A stretch of DNA of 50,690 nt from [Clostridium] symbiosum. GTDB taxonomy: Bacteria; Bacillota; Clostridia; Lachnospirales; Lachnospiraceae. The stretch is from positions 1 through 50,690 of the forward strand of contig JAETSN010000045.1 of assembly GCA_021769625.1 (NCBI GenBank), given 5' to 3'. The first letter of the stretch is position 1. Every line of letters starts with the position of its first letter. Of this stretch, positions 12,172 to 42,284 are shown piece after piece. The notes below the pieces were generated by a model. The model was not told the origin of the DNA and did not search any database. It worked only from the letters and a program-made list of their open reading frames with translations. A program made the position numbers and the translations under genes.

Positions 12172-12345
12172 TCACTCTCCTTCCAGCTTACTCAAAAGGG
12201 AATCCATCTCCACGATAGATTCCCTCGCCTCGTTGCTTATGATGAAATTTTCATAGTGTCCGATCTCGGTAATCAACTTACGGATTACTTCATTCTGGGA
12301 CTCAATAATATGATTTTGCAATTCAAGCAATTCTTGACTGCTCAT
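12172..12345 (-). CDS. Small helical hypothetical protein after the DGR RT
   Basis: 57 residues starting MSSQELLELQNHIIESQNEV, helical and acidic. GGAGGAGG precedes the ATG at 12345, and the frame overlaps the end of the reverse transcriptase gene by 23 bases. Operon position and ribosome site support it. No family recognised. Confidence 0.7.
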   Translation of the reverse strand: MSSQELLELQNHIIESQNEVIRKLITEIGHYENFIISNEARESIVEMDSLLSKLEGE

Positions 12346-13441
12346 AAGTTACCTCCTCCTGGTTCTTATCGTGAGTAAGGACCAGATTATCCAGAATACT
12401 TTTTATCAGGGCATCACTATCGCAATGCTCCAGCATACCGAGATAACTTTGCAATGTATCTGTAACGTCCTGCATCGTAACCTCGTAATTTGAATATTTT
12501 ACAGACAATCCCCTCAGCGCTCTTTTTATCCTGAGACTTGTGCTTTTTCGGATTACTACATGATCCGCCCACAGACGGTATCCAACAAATTCAATCCCTT
12601 GGCTGATGGGGCGGATACACGTTTTCTTATTCAGATTCAGTTCCAGTTCTTCCAGAAGAAATTTCTCAATCTGGTCTTTCCAGAAACGAAGCTGCATTTT
12701 GTCATTGCCAAGGATAATCACGTCGTCCATATAGCGAATATAAAAATGGATACACAGAACTCTCTTGCAAAATTGATCCAGCGCATCCAGATATAAATTC
12801 GCAAATACCTGAGACAGTAAATTTCCAATCGGCATTCCGACATCATACAGGCGCTCCTCCAGCGGCACATCTCCAGGAGAGCATCCCGGTGGCAATCCGA
12901 ACGGCGTATGGTCGCAATCTATAATTCCGTACAGCACATCCAGCAACCTCTGGTCCTTAATCTTATTTGCCAGAATCTTCTTCAATACCCGGTGGGATAC
13001 TCTGTAAAAATATTTGCTGATGTCCAGTTTCAAATAAAACCACTGTCCGTCTTTACGACTCACTTGCTCCAGCCAGTATTTCAGCCGGTTCATAGCACTA
13101 AGAGAACCACGACCAGGTATGCAACCATAGGAATCCTCTATGTATCCTTTTACCAGTATCGGATTGATTACCCGGTATATCGCCCATTGAATGATACGAT
13201 GCCTGAACGATATTGACATAATCATTCTTTTCTTCGGCTCGTAGATGTAAAATATAAAATATTTGTCTATCTTGTAAGTGCCATTCAGGATTTCCTGCCT
13301 CAACTCATTCAGCAGCGCCCAGGAATCCAAATTATAAATCAATACATCCTTATTGTATCTGCGTCCATTGGAGGCATCCTCTAAGGCAAGGTACAGATTG
13401 TCCATCGAAAATATGGTATCGAAAACGTTCTTAATTTTCAT
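12323..13441 (-). CDS. DGR reverse transcriptase
   Basis: 372 residues. The catalytic motif YMDD is at about residues 237-240 and IGNLLSQ at 205-211 matches the IGxxxSQ motif typical of DGR reverse transcriptases, which make adenine-mutated cDNA. YLKLDISKYFYR carries the other active-site Asp. ATG at 13441 follows GAGG; a TTG just before is possible. It lies downstream of avd and the template repeat in the order target, avd, TR, RT, as in Bordetella phage BPP-1. It copies TR RNA to diversify the tail-tip gene. Confidence 0.97.
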   Translation of the reverse strand: MKIKNVFDTIFSMDNLYLALEDASNGRRYNKDVLIYNLDSWALLNELRQEILNGTYKIDKYFIFYIYEPKKRMIMSISFRHRIIQWAIYRVINPILVKGYIEDSYGCIPGRGSLSAMNRLKYWLEQVSRKDGQWFYLKLDISKYFYRVSHRVLKKILANKIKDQRLLDVLYGIIDCDHTPFGLPPGCSPGDVPLEERLYDVGMPIGNLLSQVFANLYLDALDQFCKRVLCIHFYIRYMDDVIILGNDKMQLRFWKDQIEKFLLEELELNLNKKTCIRPISQGIEFVGYRLWADHVVIRKSTSLRIKRALRGLSVKYSNYEVTMQDVTDTLQSYLGMLEHCDSDALIKSILDNLVLTHDKNQEEVTYEQSRIA

Positions 13442-13780
13442 CAATACCTCTTTGTCAAAAGTCTATGTGTTGCAGCTTTCGCCGTGGCTACTTGCAGCTT
13501 CCATAGTTGTTTCCGGTTTGTGTGTCTCCCCGGAAACGACTCTACCCACTTTCAGGAGCAGAGCCCTTTTTCTCCTGCCTTTCAGCCCGGAGCGGAAATA
13601 GACTCCTTTATCCTCTCGCACTGTCGAGTAAAGCGGAGCGGAAGCCGATGTTGCTGTTCGAGTTCGACCGAGGGTTGTTCAGGTTCACGTTGAACACACC
13701 GGCGTTGGAAGTGTTGTTCCAGCTGCCACCGCAAATCGGCAAGCGCAATAGCCTATTCCCAAAGGAAACGCCCCGCCATT
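13442..13780 (-). ncRNA. DGR template RNA region (TR plus spacer)
   Basis: The 339 bases between avd and the RT gene contain no supported gene. They hold the template repeat (13630-13746) and about 185 bases downstream of it. In BPP-1 the segment just downstream of TR is needed to prime cDNA synthesis, and this spacer is GC-rich and can fold (for example GTTTCCGG/CCGGAAAC at about 13508-13535). Confidence 0.75.
13630..13746 (-). repeat. DGR template repeat (TR)
   Basis: A 117-bp copy of the variable repeat. On the coding (minus) strand it has 25 adenines in 15 codons, ten of them AAC, which is how TRs maximise diversity. All 16 differences from the variable repeat fall at these adenines; all other bases match. 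Boundaries are set by the last matching bases on each side. Confidence 0.97.
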
Positions 13781-14203
13781 TCAGCGGGGCTGATAACCTT
13801 TCTTGTTCTTGACCGGAGCATCTTCATACAGCCACTTCTTGTAACCTCCGAGCATACTCCCGATCTCTTTGGAACGCCGTGTCCACTCACTAAAAGACGA
13901 GGAGCCTTTCAGATATTTCATTCGGTACGCAAGTGTTATAAAATCCTGAAGCGCTTTGTTCTTCATGTCCAGATTTTTATGCGGCGTTTTCTTTGAGTAC
14001 GCCCACTCCAACTCGTTTGCCAGTTCCAACATTTCTTCCATGCAGAGCGCCATCTTGTCTCCCAGCAATTTCTGGTGTGGAACCGACCATTTCTCTATGA
14101 GGGGGAGTGCGTACTCTATCATGTCAATAATTTTCATCCGGATTTTCAGGTTTTCTACTTGCTGCTCCCCTGTTGCCGTTTCATTCTTTTCTGTAAGCGC
14201 CAC
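13781..14203 (-). CDS. avd: Avd, DGR accessory variability protein
   Basis: 140 residues from a GTG preceded by AAGGAGG. Four amphipathic helices of about 20-25 residues separated by short turns match the Avd/S23-like four-helix bundle. Avd forms a basic pentamer that binds the reverse transcriptase and is required for homing. The C-terminus is basic (KNKKGYQPR). Location between VR and TR is the standard place. Confidence 0.93.
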   Translation of the reverse strand: MALTEKNETATGEQQVENLKIRMKIIDMIEYALPLIEKWSVPHQKLLGDKMALCMEEMLELANELEWAYSKKTPHKNLDMKNKALQDFITLAYRMKYLKGSSSFSEWTRRSKEIGSMLGGYKKWLYEDAPVKNKKGYQPR

Positions 14204-14229
14204 GGTATTCCTCCTTCAAAAGCTGCAAA

Positions 14230-14249
14230 TGCTCTGCTACCGCAGAGCA
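14230..14249 (-). other. DGR hairpin/cruciform downstream of VR
   Basis: An 8-bp perfect inverted repeat, TGCTCTGC ... GCAGAGCA, with a 4-base loop GGTA on the coding strand. It lies 28 bases past the VR end and 15 bases past the target gene stop. Hairpins with an 8-bp stem and GRNA tetraloop just downstream of VR are known to promote target homing in BPP-1; GGTA fits GRNA. Confidence 0.75.
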
Positions 14250-14264
14250 ATCAGTGTCTCAGTG

Positions 14265-15338
14265 TTACAGTTCACAGAAAGCGGAGCGGAAGCCGAGGAG
14301 GCTGTACGAGTCCGACCGAGGGTAGTGCAGGTTCACGCTGAACACACCGGCGCTGGAAGCGCCGGACCAGCGGCCACCGCAAAGCGGCAAGCGCTCTCCT
14401 ACAGGATTGAACCAGTGGTAATCTCCGCCATAGTCTCCACCCGGTTCATCCGGATACAGCAGGAGCGCTTTTGCCAGTTCCGGCGCTGCGCTCAGTCCGG
14501 AGGCAAGCGTCATATCTTTGTACTGACCTCCAACACCTGTGTCAGTGGTGTATGTGATTGCTCCTTTCGTAAGCTGGATTTTACTGGATACCCAATCCCA
14601 CTTCAGGGTATCTGCCGATCCCGGATCGACCAGGGTTCCGTCTGCTTTGATAGCTTTCCACTCCGTAGACTGCGCTCCCATGTTGGTTTCTGCCAGCATA
14701 CTGTTCGCATACGGGATAATCTGAATCTCAGCGTCTTTCAGTCTCATGCCAGCGCACCACTCCCATACGTTTCCGTTGAGGTCTGCGATTCCATCCGGCA
14801 TCCAGTTATGGTTCCAGGTTGCCGGTCCAGAGCCGGTAGCGCACCTCGCCGGTTCTCCTGGATGGCTGTCTGCTTCTGCGCTTTCATAAGATGTCGGGAT
14901 GCCCTTCTCGTGAGGATAGGAAATATCCTTTCCCCAGTTATTGTTTCCTCTCGGCATGGTTTCGTTCTTACGACACCACAGGGCGATTGCGCACCACAAC
15001 GAATACGGAACCAGGCTCCATCCGTTTCCTTTGTTGCGGCAGAATGTCAAAGCTTGGTCGAAATTCACATAAGTCTTCGGATCACGCATGGGGAGACTGT
15101 ATGCACGGTCATTCAGAACAATGCTCTGGTACTTCCCGACATAAATCTTATCCTTGTCCACCCCGCCTACTTTGAATCCCGGATGTACATTCTGGCTGCC
15201 TCCATCCATAATGTCGGAAATATTCATCTTCGGAAAAGGAACCATGACAGAGGGCATTTCCATGTCATCAAAAAGGACGGTATTCTTACCGCCCGACATC
15301 GCTTCAATCGCTAATTTAAAATCATCAAAATTCGGCAT
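14265..15338 (-). CDS. DGR target protein (C-type lectin fold tail tip)
   Basis: 357 residues. The middle contains GNVWEWCAG at about 190-200, a hallmark of the formylglycine-generating-enzyme/C-type-lectin fold used by Mtd and other DGR targets. The last 40 residues (about 315-354) are encoded by the variable repeat and end GFRSAF, then CEL. Thirteen residues in the VR differ from the TR version. It lies at the end of the tail gene cluster, so it is probably the receptor-binding tip. The ATG is preceded by a ribosome site. Confidence 0.95.
   Translation of the reverse strand: MPNFDDFKLAIEAMSGGKNTVLFDDMEMPSVMVPFPKMNISDIMDGGSQNVHPGFKVGGVDKDKIYVGKYQSIVLNDRAYSLPMRDPKTYVNFDQALTFCRNKGNGWSLVPYSLWCAIALWCRKNETMPRGNNNWGKDISYPHEKGIPTSYESAEADSHPGEPARCATGSGPATWNHNWMPDGIADLNGNVWEWCAGMRLKDAEIQIIPYANSMLAETNMGAQSTEWKAIKADGTLVDPGSADTLKWDWVSSKIQLTKGAITYTTDTGVGGQYKDMTLASGLSAAPELAKALLLYPDEPGGDYGGDYHWFNPVGERLPLCGGRWSGASSAGVFSVNLHYPRSDSYSLLGFRSAFCEL
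14278..14394 (-). repeat. DGR variable repeat (VR)
   Basis: 117 bp at the 3' end of the target gene. Compared with TR, 16 of 25 template adenines are changed (to G, C or T) and no other base differs. The changes alter 13 codons (for example AAC to TCC, GGC, CAC, TAC, GAC, CTC). The GC-rich 3' end, shared with TR (GGCTTCCGCTCCGCTTT), would be the initiation-of-homing site. Confidence 0.97.
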
Positions 15339-21773: not shown

Positions 21774-24700
21774 TCACGCCTCCCCTCTTACCGGCATATT
21801 AGAGAATACCATCTCCAGCCTTTCTGCAAGTTCACCGCCGATTTCATCTGCAAGTTCCTTCATGTGCGCCCGGAAGACTCTGACAATATCTGCCTCGTTT
21901 CCGCCGCTTCCGTTAATCTGGAAGGTAGGATTCAGGGTTACATTTACAGATACCTCTGTCTTTCTTCCGCCGTCATCCTGCTCCGCCTTTACCGGGACCT
22001 CTCCCGTGATAGGTGTATCCTCTGTAGTATCCTCTGAGAACTCGTTATTGCCCCGTGGTGCTTTTGAAAGAGTATCATTGATATAATTTAGGTCATCGTT
22101 ATTTTGCAACGGATTTGGGCTATATCTCGGATTTCCAATCAGCCCTCCGTCTGCATATTTTCTGACTCCCAGTAATTCTCCTGCTTTTTCCCACAGGCTA
22201 AGTCCTCTACTTCTCCTTTTCCCTCCAAGGGGAATGATTGCTTCTGGTCCATCTTCTCCAACCCATGAAAGAATCGGGCTGTCTATGATGTCACCCTCTG
22301 CGTTGGATGCGATGCTCGCACTGACCGTTGCCGTTCCGGAGCCGCCGCCTGAGAAGCTGATTGTAGCTGACGGATTCGCCAGCTTATAGTTTGCCGTAAT
22401 TGTAACCGGCGTAGTCGTATTGAATCCCGGAGCAAAAGCCGTGTCAATCGCTGTACCGGTATTTCCCTTCAGCGTAGTAATGGCTGAGTTGATCGGTCCC
22501 ATATCCGTATTCTGAATGGAGTTGCCTACTCCGCTGCCTACCGCTGTCCCTATACCGGAATAATCAATAAGCGAAAGCTGTGACGGAAGACCTGTGCTGA
22601 TATTCTCTACCAGCGGTGCATACGCACCGGACAGATCAGCCGCCGCCATTTGCTCATAATACTCATTGGAGAATGGACCGACAAAATCAATTCCTGAATA
22701 TGCGCTGCTCATATCTACGCTGCTGAAAGCCGCCGTAATCTGCTCCTGCATACTCTGAGGAATCGTCTCTGCCACACTGCTCATCATTTCTGTAATCGCT
22801 GCCTGCGCTTCCATGCTGAGGCTGTCCAGTCCGAGCCACTGAGATGCCGTTTCCGTATCCCATGATGTCACATCCACACCGCTTGCCATCGCTTCATGCA
22901 AAGCCTGTTGCAGCTTTTCTGCCGTGGTTCCGGACAGTTCTGGAAGAATCCCGTCTAGTTCTTCAGAGTATGCTTCCGCAATCGCCTCCAGCTGGAAATT
23001 TTCCACAGTGACTGACATATCGGAGATTTTGGCTTCGTATCCGTCTGCCAGTGCCTGTAGCTGTTCGTCGTACTGCTCCTGCGTAATAGCACCTTCATCC
23101 AACTGCAATTCAAGGCTGGCAATGCCAACCTTCAGGGATTCATCATAGCTTGACGTAGCGCTCTCCACTTGCTCCTGCAACTCCGCCTGAAGTTCTGCGA
23201 AAGAATCTGCATCCAGGGCAGCGCCGCTGTACTTAATCTTCAGTGCCTTGAACTCCGCTTCTGTCTGAATGTCTGCAACCTTCTGCGTGATTTCCGTAAT
23301 CTGGTTCTGGAGATTGGTAATCTCTGCCTGTTCGTCCAGCGTAATAACTCCGTCCTCCAGCGCCACATTTACCTTCGCTGTCAACTGTGAGCCGAGAGAG
23401 TCAATCTGCTCCTGCAATCCTGCGTAAGCCGCATTAAGCCCGGAAGTCATATCCACATCAGAATCCGGTTCAATCAGAAGGTCAATCGCTGCTTTCGCCT
23501 CATAGTGCTTGCTTTCCACATAATCGGCTGTGTTCTGGATAAGGGCATCAATACCGTTCACGTATTCCTGAATGTCGGTATCGTCAAACTCCAGCCCCAG
23601 ACTTGCCTTCCAGTTCAGCTTATCCATATTGGAAATAGCCGACTCCATATTGCTGTACGCCTGTTCTGTCTGTTCTGACGCATCCGCAAATTTTGTGACC
23701 GCTTCGATGTTCTCTCCGAAAGTCATCTGCTTCGCAATATCCTGAATTTCCTGCATGGAGAGTTTGATGTCTCCGAAATGGTCCTTCAGGTTCGTCCCTA
23801 CAGCTTTCTGGAATAACTGACCGAACTCTTCTGCCGTCATGCTCGTATCAGCCAGCGCATCCTTCAAATCCTGGGATTCATACTTTGCCTGTTCTTCTGC
23901 CAGGGCAAGGGCTTCCGCCTCTTCCTGTGCAGCTTTCAGGTTCTCTTCGTACTCCTTTTTGGCGCTGTCTCCTTTAATCCAGCCAGCGATACCGCCAACT
24001 CCGGCTCCAATCAGAGCGCCAACCGCAGTTCCCAGTCCAGGGATAACACTTCCCAACGCTGCGCCAGTAGCCGCTCCGGCAGCCACACCTCCGACTTTCC
24101 ATGCGCCGGATTCTTTGTACGCAGACGCTTCTTCTTTGTTGTCCGATGTGAAACCTTTATACAGGTCCATACCGCCGCTAATAAGTGTGGCTCCTCCGAC
24201 CGCACCTCCGGCAGTTGCGCCGAGTCCCAGAGCCGACAACGCTCCGGCAGACAAGGATGCCCCTCCAGCCAGATTTCCGGCTCCTAACTTGATTGCCGTA
24301 TTTGCACCGAAGCCAAGTATTCCCGTCCCGGCACCGGCGCTTCCGATAATTCTACTTCCCAGACCGGGAACAACCGTAGTTCCTCCGCCTGCGGTCGTGG
24401 TAGTTGTGCTTCCAAACAAAGTTTTTCCAACCTTGAACGCTCCCTTGCCTACGTTAAATCCAGTACTGAGTAGTGGCATACCAATTTTCGCAATCAGCGC
24501 CGCAGACAGCCAGGAAGACAGGTCTGCTTCCTCTCCGCCCGGAAGTATCTTTGCTGCGTTGGAGAAGATTCCTTTGATAGCCTCCGACAGTTTGCTCATG
24601 ATTACCTTCGTGTCGAACCCGTCAGCAAATCCCTTTGCAAAAGCGCTTCCGATGTTCTGTCCTTCATCCAGGATTCCATCTGTATCTACACCGAGCAAGG

Positions 24701-39730: not shown

Positions 39731-40657
39731 CTACTTTCCGGCTAAATAGTCAGCCGCTAAGTATTCTATGGCTTGCCACTTATTCTTAGGTCCAACCACG
39801 CCCTCTTCCAACATTTTCTTTACCGCCTCCTGTATGATCTCAGCAGATTCAGCCGGGACTGCGCTGCTTCCGAAGATACCGGTAAGCTGCACCCACTCGC
39901 TGTCTTCTGCATAGCCGATGTCCTCAAACATCTGCTCCGTGCATTTAATCATGGCATGGATGGCGGCTCCGGTGTTCTTGACATTGGCGAACTGCTGATA
40001 CTTCGCCAGTGTCTCCATGAACGGTTTATACTGTTCAATATCTGCCACTCCAAGAAAATCAGGCTTCGTACTCTCCAAAGCGTCAATGAGTTTCTGCAAG
40101 TCTGCGATCTGATGCGGCAGAAATGTAAACGTCAGGTTCTTCCAGTCAAATTCCACTGTCGGAGAGAGATACTTTTCCAGTTCCGCCTCCGGCTCCGCCA
40201 GAATATCCTTTCCGGCATAGCTTTCTATCATATCGTCCACATCCTCCAGCATCTTCGCCAGTTCTTTCAGGGTGGACTGATCGTCAAACCCGGAGATAGC
40301 ATTGTGAGCAATCTGCTTTGCCACAATCTTTGATCTGTTTAGCCCGCTCACATCCAGAATGACAAAGAACTCTTTGATTCCCGCATCCTTCCCGGATCGG
40401 ATTCTGTGATGACCGGAAATGATTTCTATTCTGGTCCCCTCTTCAGTGAGGGCGCAAAAAGGCAGCGATTCAAGCTGACCTCTTTTCTTGATATTATCGG
40501 TCAACTGGCGCTGCATTTCATTTTTCATAATCCGAGCGTTGATGTCCTGCTCTCTGATACACTCAGCAGGAACTTTCGCAATGATCAGCCCGGAACCCAT
40601 ATCAGCTATTTGCTCATATCGGATTTTGCTTTGGCTTTCGCTCTTTCCTTCTGCCAC
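39731..40657 (-). CDS. ParB-domain protein
   Basis: 308 residues from a GTG at 40657 preceded by AAGGAGG (8 bases); the longer frame to 40864 overlaps the methyltransferase gene out of frame. Residues about 25-110 form a ParB N-terminal/Srx-like domain with the ISGHHRIRSGKDAG motif, known for CTP-binding or nuclease activity. The rest is helical. In phages this domain is commonly paired with a DNA methyltransferase gene, as here. Confidence 0.88.
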   Translation of the reverse strand: MAEGKSESQSKIRYEQIADMGSGLIIAKVPAECIREQDINARIMKNEMQRQLTDNIKKRGQLESLPFCALTEEGTRIEIISGHHRIRSGKDAGIKEFFVILDVSGLNRSKIVAKQIAHNAISGFDDQSTLKELAKMLEDVDDMIESYAGKDILAEPEAELEKYLSPTVEFDWKNLTFTFLPHQIADLQKLIDALESTKPDFLGVADIEQYKPFMETLAKYQQFANVKNTGAAIHAMIKCTEQMFEDIGYAEDSEWVQLTGIFGSSAVPAESAEIIQEAVKKMLEEGVVGPKNKWQAIEYLAADYLAGK

Positions 40658-42051
40658 TTTTCTTCCCTCCTTAACCATTCCTGAAGCGTCTGCTTCTCTG
40701 TCCGGTCTTTCAATTCTGATTCGTAGGTCAGACGAAAGCCCATCTTCTGATCCGGGATGCGCTTTGTCAGTTTCATGATGCCACGCATTTCCTTTGCTTC
40801 CGGATACTTTGTCATCTGAACCGTTTTCAGGTGTCCAACCTTTTCTTTCTCCAGGTCGTTGCATATCTTGAAAACAAATTCCCGGTTCTGCGCCAGCATT
40901 GTCAGCAGTCTTCCCAACCGATACTTCTTGTGCGGGACGGTCATTCCATACATAAGAAAAAGAGCGTCTGATACCTGAGTACCAAATGCTCCCATCGTCA
41001 ATGCCGACTTATCTACGCCGAACACACCGGCTATTTTCCCATCAATCAGAACCGCAATGTTGATCGGAGCGGAAGAGCCTACAAAATTGTGCGTCCAGAG
41101 TTGACGGTAATACTGCGCTTCTGCTCTTTCGATCTGGCAAAGCTGTACTTTCGTCTTTTCTGTAATCTCGTAGTCTCTCGGCAGCATACTACATTCCAGG
41201 CACGCCAGCTTACTCTCCCCTGGTCTTGCTATCTTCTTTCCTTGCGCAAGAGCCGTTGCTTCGTCCGGTCTGTTCGCTGTTAGATACACATTGATGCCGC
41301 TCCGTACCCCGTATCGTGCGAACACTGGCTCTCCCGCCGTCTTTCCTGGTTCATTCTCCTCATAGCAGAGAACCAGGCACTTTGCATCCTTACACATGTC
41401 CATGAATTCTTTCAGCCCCGTCTTCGGATCAAAGATTCCATACTCCGGCTCCTTCCAGGTCATCATCCCGCCAGTGTCATAATACTTTTCAAACCCGGCA
41501 GTATACGTGGGAGGATTTGCGATGACAACACAGTGCTCATCATCCAGCACCTCGTCCATATGCTTCCACATGTCCAGCGCCCGGTAATTCATGCCGTTCA
41601 GGATGCCTTTCGCCCTCTCCAACTGTTCCCGGATATTCGCTATGTGTTCTTCCCGTCTGCCAGCCAGATCAAGCATGAAATTGTAGAAGTATTCTTTTCC
41701 GGCGTTCTTTACCGTGCTGAGATATTTCCATGCATACATCGCCACTGCCGGGTCCAGCAATTCTTCATCCGTGAATCCCTTTGCGTGAATCTCCAGTTCG
41801 TCCAGCGGTTTCCCGGTCACTGCGTATCCCATAATAGACGTAAACATGGACACATCGGATGATTCTATCTCGCTGGGTTTGAATCCGGACTGAACTGCCA
41901 GGTGTGACATGGCAAAAGCGCCGGCACATGGCTCTACGAACTTTGTATAACCGCTCTTTCTGGCGCTTTCCAGCAGCACCTTCAGGAACTTCTGCTCCGA
42001 TGGGACAAGCGTTCCCAGGAAAAATGCCCCTGGATTCTGAAACATCGCCAT
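40606..42051 (-). CDS. Putative phage adenine DNA methyltransferase
   Basis: 481 residues. FVEPCAGAFAMS (about 38-49) fits the SAM-binding motif I, and NPPTY near residue 180 fits the catalytic NPPY motif of N6-adenine methyltransferases. The C-terminal third (GKIAGVFGVDKS and KKYRLGRLLTMLAQNR blocks) has a possible acetyltransferase-like fold. GGAGGG precedes the ATG at 42051. It overlaps the ParB gene. A role in anti-restriction or in marking phage DNA is likely but not shown. Confidence 0.85.
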   Translation of the reverse strand: MAMFQNPGAFFLGTLVPSEQKFLKVLLESARKSGYTKFVEPCAGAFAMSHLAVQSGFKPSEIESSDVSMFTSIMGYAVTGKPLDELEIHAKGFTDEELLDPAVAMYAWKYLSTVKNAGKEYFYNFMLDLAGRREEHIANIREQLERAKGILNGMNYRALDMWKHMDEVLDDEHCVVIANPPTYTAGFEKYYDTGGMMTWKEPEYGIFDPKTGLKEFMDMCKDAKCLVLCYEENEPGKTAGEPVFARYGVRSGINVYLTANRPDEATALAQGKKIARPGESKLACLECSMLPRDYEITEKTKVQLCQIERAEAQYYRQLWTHNFVGSSAPINIAVLIDGKIAGVFGVDKSALTMGAFGTQVSDALFLMYGMTVPHKKYRLGRLLTMLAQNREFVFKICNDLEKEKVGHLKTVQMTKYPEAKEMRGIMKLTKRIPDQKMGFRLTYESELKDRTEKQTLQEWLRREEKWQKERAKAKAKSDMSK

Positions 42052-42135
42052 AGGCTCTCCCTCCTTCTTTCTGTATATTTTATTGCCTGAACCAGTAAAG
42101 CCTCTGGATTGCTCTATAAAACAGCCCAGGCATGG

Positions 42136-42166
42136 AAAAAGCCCCGGTAGTATTCCCGAGCCGCTT
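42136..42166 (-). terminator. Terminator-like hairpin in the methyltransferase leader
   Basis: On the minus strand AAGC, two unpaired G, CTCGG, 8-base loop, CCGGG, GCTT then TTT. It lies between promoter P7 (start near 42183) and the ATG at 42051, so it could act as an attenuator rather than an operon end. Confidence 0.6.
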
Positions 42167-42189
42167 TCATCAACTATACGCTTTACGCT

Positions 42190-42225
42190 TTTATATGTTT
42201 CTTGTACATTCTTACCAATCGGCAA
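42190..42225 (-). promoter_or_regulatory. Operator-controlled promoter P7
   Basis: On the minus strand TTGGTA (42218-42213), 17 bases and TATAAA (42195-42190). The operator TTGCCGATTGGTAA (42225-42212) covers the -35 box. It would transcribe the methyltransferase-ParB-terminase genes. The -35 match is only fair. Confidence 0.55.
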
Positions 42226-42284
42226 TTTTATAAGCCCCGTGATCGGAGGCACTGCTACTGGCATATTGCACAATCGGCAGCATT

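What the first reader, a model, noticed from the sequence alone, without database searches (positions are those of the whole stretch)
12323..15338. Complete diversity-generating retroelement with a clean adenine-only substitution pattern
Target gene, avd, TR and RT lie in the BPP-1 order. TR (13630-13746) and VR (14278-14394) are both 117 bp. All 16 mismatches are at the 25 coding-strand adenines of TR and none of the other 92 positions differs. Thirteen codons are altered, including seven AAC codons turned into Ser, Gly, His, Tyr, Asp and Leu. The host tail-tip protein therefore looks actively diversified. The RT has IGNLLSQ and YMDD.
Basis: partly seen in the sequence, partly recalled or inferred. 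Interest (0 to 1): 0.9.

Follow-up and report, generated by a model that had tools for sequence, protein, structure and literature searches.

The report
Phage gene-diversifying retroelement with truncated RNA
A bacterial virus carries a well-known kind of retroelement that rewrites one of its own genes at adenines; it has clearly worked in the past, but the assembled copy lacks an RNA stem-loop that its close relatives keep, so it may now be switched off.

Summary
The cassette is a real diversity-generating retroelement (DGR): target, avd, TR, RT on the minus strand. TR 13630-13746 and VR 14278-14394 differ at 16 of 117 positions, all 16 at TR adenines (chance about 1e-13). The target has the fold of a solved DGR variable protein, TaqVP. 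In eight pairs of close relatives 123 of 200 VR adenine sites differ, against about 1% elsewhere, so the lineage diversifies in nature. (1) The template RNA behind TR is 34-37 nt shorter than in 12 measured relatives. The missing stretch is a covarying stem-loop, found in 27 of 28 searched close relatives; the 28th holds no DNA there. The proteins look undamaged, so any loss is recent. 'Complete' and 'actively diversified' are not established; an assembly error is not excluded. (2) The target site has the GRNA hairpin known from BPP-1 and, before it, a strand-specific array of CTG trinucleotides 7-8 nt apart: 53 of 77 distinct VR flanks, 0 of 77 TR flanks. It sits where BPP-1 has its directionality signal (IMH); I found no description of it. 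Overall: a new member of a known kind.

The parts
14265..15338 (-). target gene, 357 aa, TaqVP-like C-type lectin fold variable protein
   Evidence: phrog_2889 7.2e-138; AlphaFold2 pLDDT 90.6; Foldseek 5vf4 TMq 0.90, 35% identity
14278..14394 (-). [quoted passage not shown]
   Evidence: 16 of 117 differ from TR, all at TR adenines
14252..14277 (-). array of four CTG, spacing 7, 8, 8 nt; IMH-equivalent position; includes the target stop codon (14265-14267)
   Evidence: conservation in the family
14230..14249 (-). target-site hairpin/cruciform, 8-bp stem, loop GGTA (fits GRNA)
   Evidence: compared with PMC3240598 section 10
13781..14203 (-). avd, 140 aa, GTG start behind GGAGG
   Evidence: phrog_3206 Avd 4.5e-28; bAvd PF22296 3.6e-9, 37.5 bits against cut-off 40
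13630..13746 (-). template repeat (TR), 117 bp, 25 adenines
13445..13629 (-). spacer (Sp) RNA between TR and RT; RT-14-like; its 5' stem-loop is missing
   Evidence: alignment; R1 no intact match; RF02921 21.2 of 48.1 bits
13625..13629 (-). approximate place of the deletion, directly behind TR; window 34-37 nt shorter than 12 relatives
12323..13441 (-). reverse transcriptase, 372 aa from the ATG
   Evidence: phrog_1423 1.2e-133; RVT_1 1.7e-19; catalytic Asp and YMDD aligned with BPP-1 Brt

Best explanation
This is a phage-borne, Avd-type DGR of the BPP-1 kind. Shown: the VR is a copy of TR rewritten only at adenines; the target is predicted with confidence to have the fold of DGR variable proteins; the target site carries a GRNA hairpin. 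Inferred from BPP-1: an avd-TR-spacer transcript is bound by RT and Avd, a spacer adenine primes error-prone cDNA synthesis into TR, and the cDNA replaces the VR next to the IMH and the hairpin, giving new receptor-binding variants. Also inferred: because the conserved first stem-loop of the spacer RNA is gone from this assembled copy, cDNA synthesis is probably weakened or abolished, and the loss is recent, since the proteins and the non-adenine positions of VR show no decay.
For: A-only pattern. RT, Avd and target families and fold. Hairpin with a GRNA loop. Lineage activity: over eight close pairs taken the VR adenine sites differ at 123 of 200, VR non-adenine sites at 7 of 710, TR at 5 of 910, remaining sequence at 224 of 21251 (sums). 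Missing stem-loop: covariation score 0.724 against 0.271 in shuffles, 0 of 500 as high; R1 hits 27 of 28 searched loci with RT at least 55% identical (16 of these built the model, 11 were held out, some near-duplicates of built ones), the 28th holding no DNA upstream of its RT, and L155 as well; no intact match in the window. Recent loss: the window RT has 0 private substitutions at otherwise invariant columns, relatives 0 to 3. The need for the spacer RNA rests on BPP-1 work as told in PMC12875486, introduction read.
Against: No experiment shows that this particular stem-loop is essential. The deletion could be an assembly or consensus error; no reads were available. The window's score with Rfam RT-14 (21.2 bits) lies within what 20 relatives' cassettes give (13 with 20.0 to 46.6 bits, 7 with no match at the cassette), so that curated model does not single it out. 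The clean VR and intact RT fit an active element equally well. Of 13 pairs without shared members, four are identical throughout and one more (L035/L036) differs at 9 of 22 VR adenine sites but also at 8 of 89 other VR sites and 6 of 111 TR sites.
Confidence: 0.6

Rival explanations
1. The DGR is fully active; the missing stem-loop is either dispensable here or an assembly error.
For: RT, Avd and target open; no private substitution in RT; VR has no non-adenine mismatch; relatives are active; the rest of the spacer aligns well.
Against: The stem-loop is in each of the 27 close relatives whose held DNA reaches it and in L155, and covaries strongly.
Confidence: 0.37
2. A long-dead DGR relic.
For: Missing RNA element.
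Against: Open reading frames intact, 0 of 92 non-adenine TR/VR mismatches, no private RT substitution.
Confidence: 0.03
3. The CTG array behind VR is chance or a by-product of coding or of stop codons, not a signal. (This rival concerns the array, not the cassette.)
For: In the window itself two other places hold three or more CTG at this spacing, one of them four, so one array alone proves nothing; the first copies overlap the end of the target gene; arrays are lacking in several distant named phages.
Against: 53 of 77 distinct flanks against a shuffle mean of 0.075 (maximum 1) and 0 of 77 TR flanks; CTG 279 against CAG 14; a 7-nt spacing breaks the codon frame; still 20 of 32 (YTG) when RTs are clustered at 70% identity.
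Confidence: 0.15

Closest known systems
Bordetella phage BPP-1 DGR
   Same: Order target-avd-TR-RT, Avd, adenine-only VR changes, hairpin with GRNA loop behind VR.
   Different: RT 30% identical. BPP-1 has a 21-bp IMH that differs from TR at 5 positions and a 4-bp gap to the hairpin (PMC3240598 passages); here the TR flank does not resemble the CTG array at all.
Thermus aquaticus prophage DGR (TaqVP, PDB 5vf4)
   Same: Target fold over its whole length, TMq 0.90, 35% identity; VR at the very C-terminus (PMC6328139 passages).
   Different: Host and sequence; only the protein was compared here.
Bacillus phage BalMu-1 and Faecalibacterium phage FP_Lagaffe DGRs
   Same: Same gene order behind baseplate genes, RT 41 and 43% identical, TR about 75% identical, CTG array behind VR.
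   Different: BalMu-1 keeps the stem-loop (R1 27.1 bits) and RT-14 (70.4 bits); FP_Lagaffe gave no R1 hit.
Rfam RF02921 RT-14 RNA
   Same: Covers the spacer behind TR in L050 (82 bits) and BalMu-1 (70.4 bits) and, just below its cut-off, in L054 (46.6 bits).
   Different: The window reaches 21.2 of 48.1 bits.

Membership tests
Diversity-generating retroelement | TR/VR pair whose differences fall at TR adenines | tested here: met
   16 of 16 at adenines
Diversity-generating retroelement | RT related to DGR RTs, with catalytic aspartates | tested here: met
   30% identical to BPP-1 Brt with LKLD/YMDD aligned; phrog_1423. The best NCBIfam hit, group II intron RT, is far below its cut-off (105.9 of 300 bits)
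Diversity-generating retroelement | Accessory protein Avd | tested here: met
   phrog_3206 Avd 4.5e-28; Pfam and NCBIfam Avd hits below their cut-offs
Diversity-generating retroelement | Target with VR at its 3' end and C-type lectin fold | tested here: met
   (predicted model)
Phage DGR target site | Hairpin behind VR, 7-10 bp stem, 4-nt GRNA loop | tested here: met
   8 bp, GGTA; criterion from PMC3240598
Phage DGR target site | IMH that differs from the TR side | tested here: inconclusive
   VR and TR flanks differ and VR has the CTG array; function not tested
DGR template RNA (Sp, RT-14-like) | Full structured spacer RNA between TR and RT | tested here: not met
   First stem-loop missing, rest kept; RT-14 21.2 of 48.1 bits
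Diversity-generating retroelement | Present retrohoming activity | not testable with these tools
   No reads, and no close strain found

The most novel reading that the evidence does not exclude
The IMH, the signal that makes VR and not TR the recipient, is in this large group of phage DGRs a phased array of YTG trinucleotides, mostly CTG every 7-8 nt on the coding strand, between the end of TR/VR identity and the hairpin: a short, repeated, strand-specific code read by the retrohoming complex or a host factor, rather than a unique sequence. In BPP-1 the IMH, as I place it, holds CTG, CTG and TTG, and the IMH* at TR lacks the middle one. The window phage then shows the mirror case: target signal kept, template RNA element lost.
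Probability: 0.5. Interest if true: 0.6.

Novelty: new member of a known kind. Interest (0 to 1): 0.42.

Why it matters
Many thousands of DGRs are on record (PMC8144416 passages), so another one is ordinary. What is useful is that comparison of its relatives (63 RT clusters at 90% identity) points to two cis elements that can be tested: a covarying stem-loop at the start of the template RNA, naturally absent in this copy, and a phased CTG array at the target site that may be what tells the machinery which repeat to overwrite. How the cDNA gets into VR is described as incompletely understood (PMC12875486, introduction).

Tried and rejected
Other VRs in the host genome: none besides TR and VR. 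Small 57-aa frame behind the RT (12172-12345) as a DGR accessory gene: apart from the window's own loci (L001, L049), only 39% identity in L005/L006 and their copies L076/L093 and an 11-residue match in L055; at this place Dulem virus 37 has a gene annotated haemolysin XhlA, so a lysis gene is likelier. Rfam RT-14 as a yardstick for the deletion: rejected, relatives overlap the window's score. Search of the host genome with R1 or RT-14: nothing at the threshold, but the answers themselves say this shows nothing. Search for the deletion junction, or for a stretch of the window's own spacer, in viral contigs: nothing, which says only that no such strain is held. Single-sequence folds of the stem-loop are not clearly better than shuffles (z -1.60 to 0.44 in four relatives); the case rests on covariation. 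Multi-frame stop codons as the reason for the CTG array: rejected because many copies read CTGG or CTGC.

Limits of the array counts. One search looked for TR/VR pairs 400-1100 nt apart and kept 110 of 152 loci (score, length, at least 80% of mismatches at adenines); 77 distinct flanks resulted, exact duplicates removed, near-duplicates not. Cassettes with TR closer to VR (Perkons, vir215, Arawn, Versailles, 202-274 nt apart) were outside that range; none of the four shows the array. Of the 77, 24 lack three CTG in phase; several of these have CCG or TTG in place of CTG. CTG also occurs 62 times in the TR flanks, but not in phase. Shuffles keep base content only. In one search, 10 of 71 loci were dropped as having a weak TR/VR score, and the 61 counted include near-duplicates and two doubtful pairs (L051, L068). 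The hit in ANMV-1 has only 15 of 39 mismatches at adenines and is not a TR/VR pair; LBR48 gave none.
Full report
Observation. On the minus strand the order is target (15338-14265), avd (14203-13781), TR (13746-13630), RT (13441-12323). TR and VR align without gaps over 117 bp; 16 positions differ and all 16 are adenines in TR; 25 adenines are available and the 92 other positions are unchanged. The chance of this for random mismatches is 1.0e-13. Thirteen codons change; nine of them are AAC, not seven. The host genome (4.08 Mb, 145 contigs) holds no further copy of TR. The window is the whole of contig 14 (50,690 bases), without an exact terminal repeat of 15-200 bases; whether it is an integrated prophage was not settled.

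Proteins. RT: phrog_1423 1.2e-133 and Pfam RVT_1; the catalytic aspartates line up with BPP-1 Brt, 30% identical. Avd: phrog_3206 4.5e-28; the Pfam bAvd and NCBIfam Avd matches are below their cut-offs. Target: no Pfam or NCBIfam family, phrog_2889 7.2e-138. An AlphaFold2 model made from 36 aligned sequences has mean pLDDT 90.6, and its best match in the PDB is the DGR variable protein of Thermus aquaticus, 5vf4, TMq 0.90 with 35% identity; a Treponema denticola variable protein and BPP-1 Mtd follow with much weaker scores. The phage has tail sheath, baseplate J, Mu gp48-like, Mu-type portal and terminase genes, so its tail is contractile, and the target lies behind the baseplate genes.

Is the lineage active? 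The nearest is 76% identical in RT, so no strain of the window phage itself was found. One search compared 21 pairs of near relatives, 13 of them without shared members. L025 and L067 differ at 16 of 24 VR adenine sites and at none of 89 other VR sites, 113 TR sites and 2839 further sites. L041 and L042 differ at 13 of 24 and at none elsewhere. Over eight of the 13 pairs the sums are 123 of 200 VR adenine sites, 7 of 710 other VR sites, 5 of 910 TR sites and 224 of 21251 further sites. Four pairs are identical throughout (L005/L006, L009/L018, L017/L061, L030/L031) and say nothing. L035/L036 was left out of the sums because its VR ends were placed differently in the two records; it shows 9 of 22, 8 of 89, 6 of 111 and 59 of 2016. 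The other eight listed pairs share members with these.

Target site. Behind VR lies an 8-bp perfect stem with loop GGTA (14230-14249), as described for phage DGRs: 7-10 bp GC-rich stems with 4-nt GRNA loops, 4-34 bp from VR (PMC3240598, section 10 read). A perfect stem of 6 bp or more was found behind VR in 49 of 61 cassettes, and in 45 of the 49 the loop of the longest one fits GRNA. Between VR and the hairpin the window has four CTG spaced 7, 8 and 8 nt. The relatives show the same: 158 CTG in 42 distinct spacers against 19.1 expected by shuffling (maximum 31 of 200 shuffles), with 108 of 116 gaps being 7 or 8 nt. In a wider set, 110 of 152 loci passed a TR/VR filter and gave 77 distinct 45-nt flanks: 53 have three or more CTG at gaps of 6-9 nt (59 with CTG or TTG), TR flanks 0 of 77, shuffles 0.075 on average with a maximum of 1; CTG occurs 279 times and CAG 14 times. 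That filter admits only TR/VR offsets of 400-1100 nt. After clustering RTs at 70% identity, 20 of 32 clusters have a YTG array, TR flanks 0 of 32, shuffles mean 0.78, maximum 5; at 50%, 5 of 12. Among 19 named phage regions the array is plain in Dulem virus 37, FP_Lagaffe and BalMu-1 and present in TTG-rich or mixed form in VP58.5, ZX4290, phiARM81mr, ACA1 and, more raggedly, 1F273; it is not evident in Bise, Perkons, YPCBV-1, vir215, LPPA56, Magia, Arawn and Versailles; BPP-1 is discussed below; ANMV-1 and LBR48 gave no usable pair. The codon frame cannot explain a 7-nt period, and in the window the array runs past the stop codon.

Comparison with BPP-1. In BPP-1 the 21-bp IMH, as I place it behind the GC-only stretch, carries CTG, CTG and TTG, and the mismatches of IMH* remove the middle CTG. 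This 21-bp element is reported to set the direction of transfer (PMC3240598 passages). The 4-bp gap between VR and hairpin could be changed there without loss (PMC3240598 passages). So the array occupies the place of the IMH, not of that gap. Paper searches with DGR terms plus IMH, hairpin, motif, CTG or tandem repeat and the passages shown from PMC3240598, PMC12875486, PMC7290462, PMC6642488, PMC11792537 and PMC10743442 gave no mention of such an array. 'CTG' as a word occurs in neither PMC11792537 nor PMC10743442; in the other four it was not looked up as a word. Subscription papers and preprints are not held, so this is weak evidence of absence.

Template RNA. In BPP-1 the spacer behind TR folds, recruits RT-Avd and holds the priming adenine (PMC12875486, introduction read). 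In this group the spacer begins with a stem-loop. On 32 sequences, 11 of 13 pairs have compensatory changes (shuffles reach 11 in 37 of 500), 89.5% of cells pair, and the covariation score is 0.724 against 0.271 in shuffles (0 of 500 as high); sliding the partners gives at most 0.229. A covariance model (R1) hit 63 of 86 sources: 27 used to build it and 36 of 58 held-out ones, several of them near-duplicates, but also six phages of Vibrio, Aeromonas, Pseudoalteromonas and Bacillus; 22 held-out sources, mostly distant or without upstream DNA, and the window were not hit. Of 28 searched loci with RT at least 55% identical to the window's, 27 were hit (16 built the model, 11 did not); the other, L020, begins inside the RT gene. 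L155, 71% identical in RT, was hit too. With filters off the window gives only a 15.1-bit match (E 0.006) that reaches into TR and pairs the outer stem with TR bases across a stretch without the conserved inner part. Measured between fixed anchors the window is 34-37 nt shorter than 12 relatives, while the rest of its spacer aligns well. This RNA is known to Rfam as RT-14: 82 bits in L050, 70.4 in BalMu-1, 46.6 in L054, 21.2 in the window. Fourteen near relatives gave no match at the gathering score of 48.1, nor did eight other DGR relatives of the 12 sources nor the distant L140 and L029 among them, 13 of 20 cassettes score 20.0 to 46.6 bits and 7 have no match at the cassette. So RT-14 does not discriminate here; R1 does.

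Reading. The proteins show no decay: the window RT has no private substitution at columns invariant in 23 relatives, which themselves have 0 to 3; Avd (8 relatives) and the target (17 relatives) have one each. Together with a VR free of other mismatches this makes any loss recent. I judge it likelier than not that this assembled copy is impaired, about 0.6, with full activity or an assembly error as the main rival. That it is a DGR that has diversified its target is practically certain.

Noticed in passing
12172-12345 (-): 57-aa frame overlapping the RT end; weakly conserved (39% in L005/L006); Dulem virus 37 has a gene annotated haemolysin XhlA there, so probably part of the lysis genes.
   Followed up: partly
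40606-42273 (-): One frame joining a phage DNA adenine methylase-like domain and a phage GNAT-like domain.
   Followed up: no
L063:14960-15026 (+): Type II hammerhead ribozyme match, 50.3 bits over a cut-off of 37, downstream of the DGR in a Blautia record.
   Followed up: no
about 24500-24521 (-) and from 40094 (+): Other runs of three or more CTG at 7-8 nt spacing inside the window; they show that one array alone is not significant.
   Followed up: partly
L019: A relative whose TR/VR pair has 19 mismatches with only 10 at adenines (and dropped as weak), perhaps a decaying cassette although it keeps the stem-loop.
   Followed up: no
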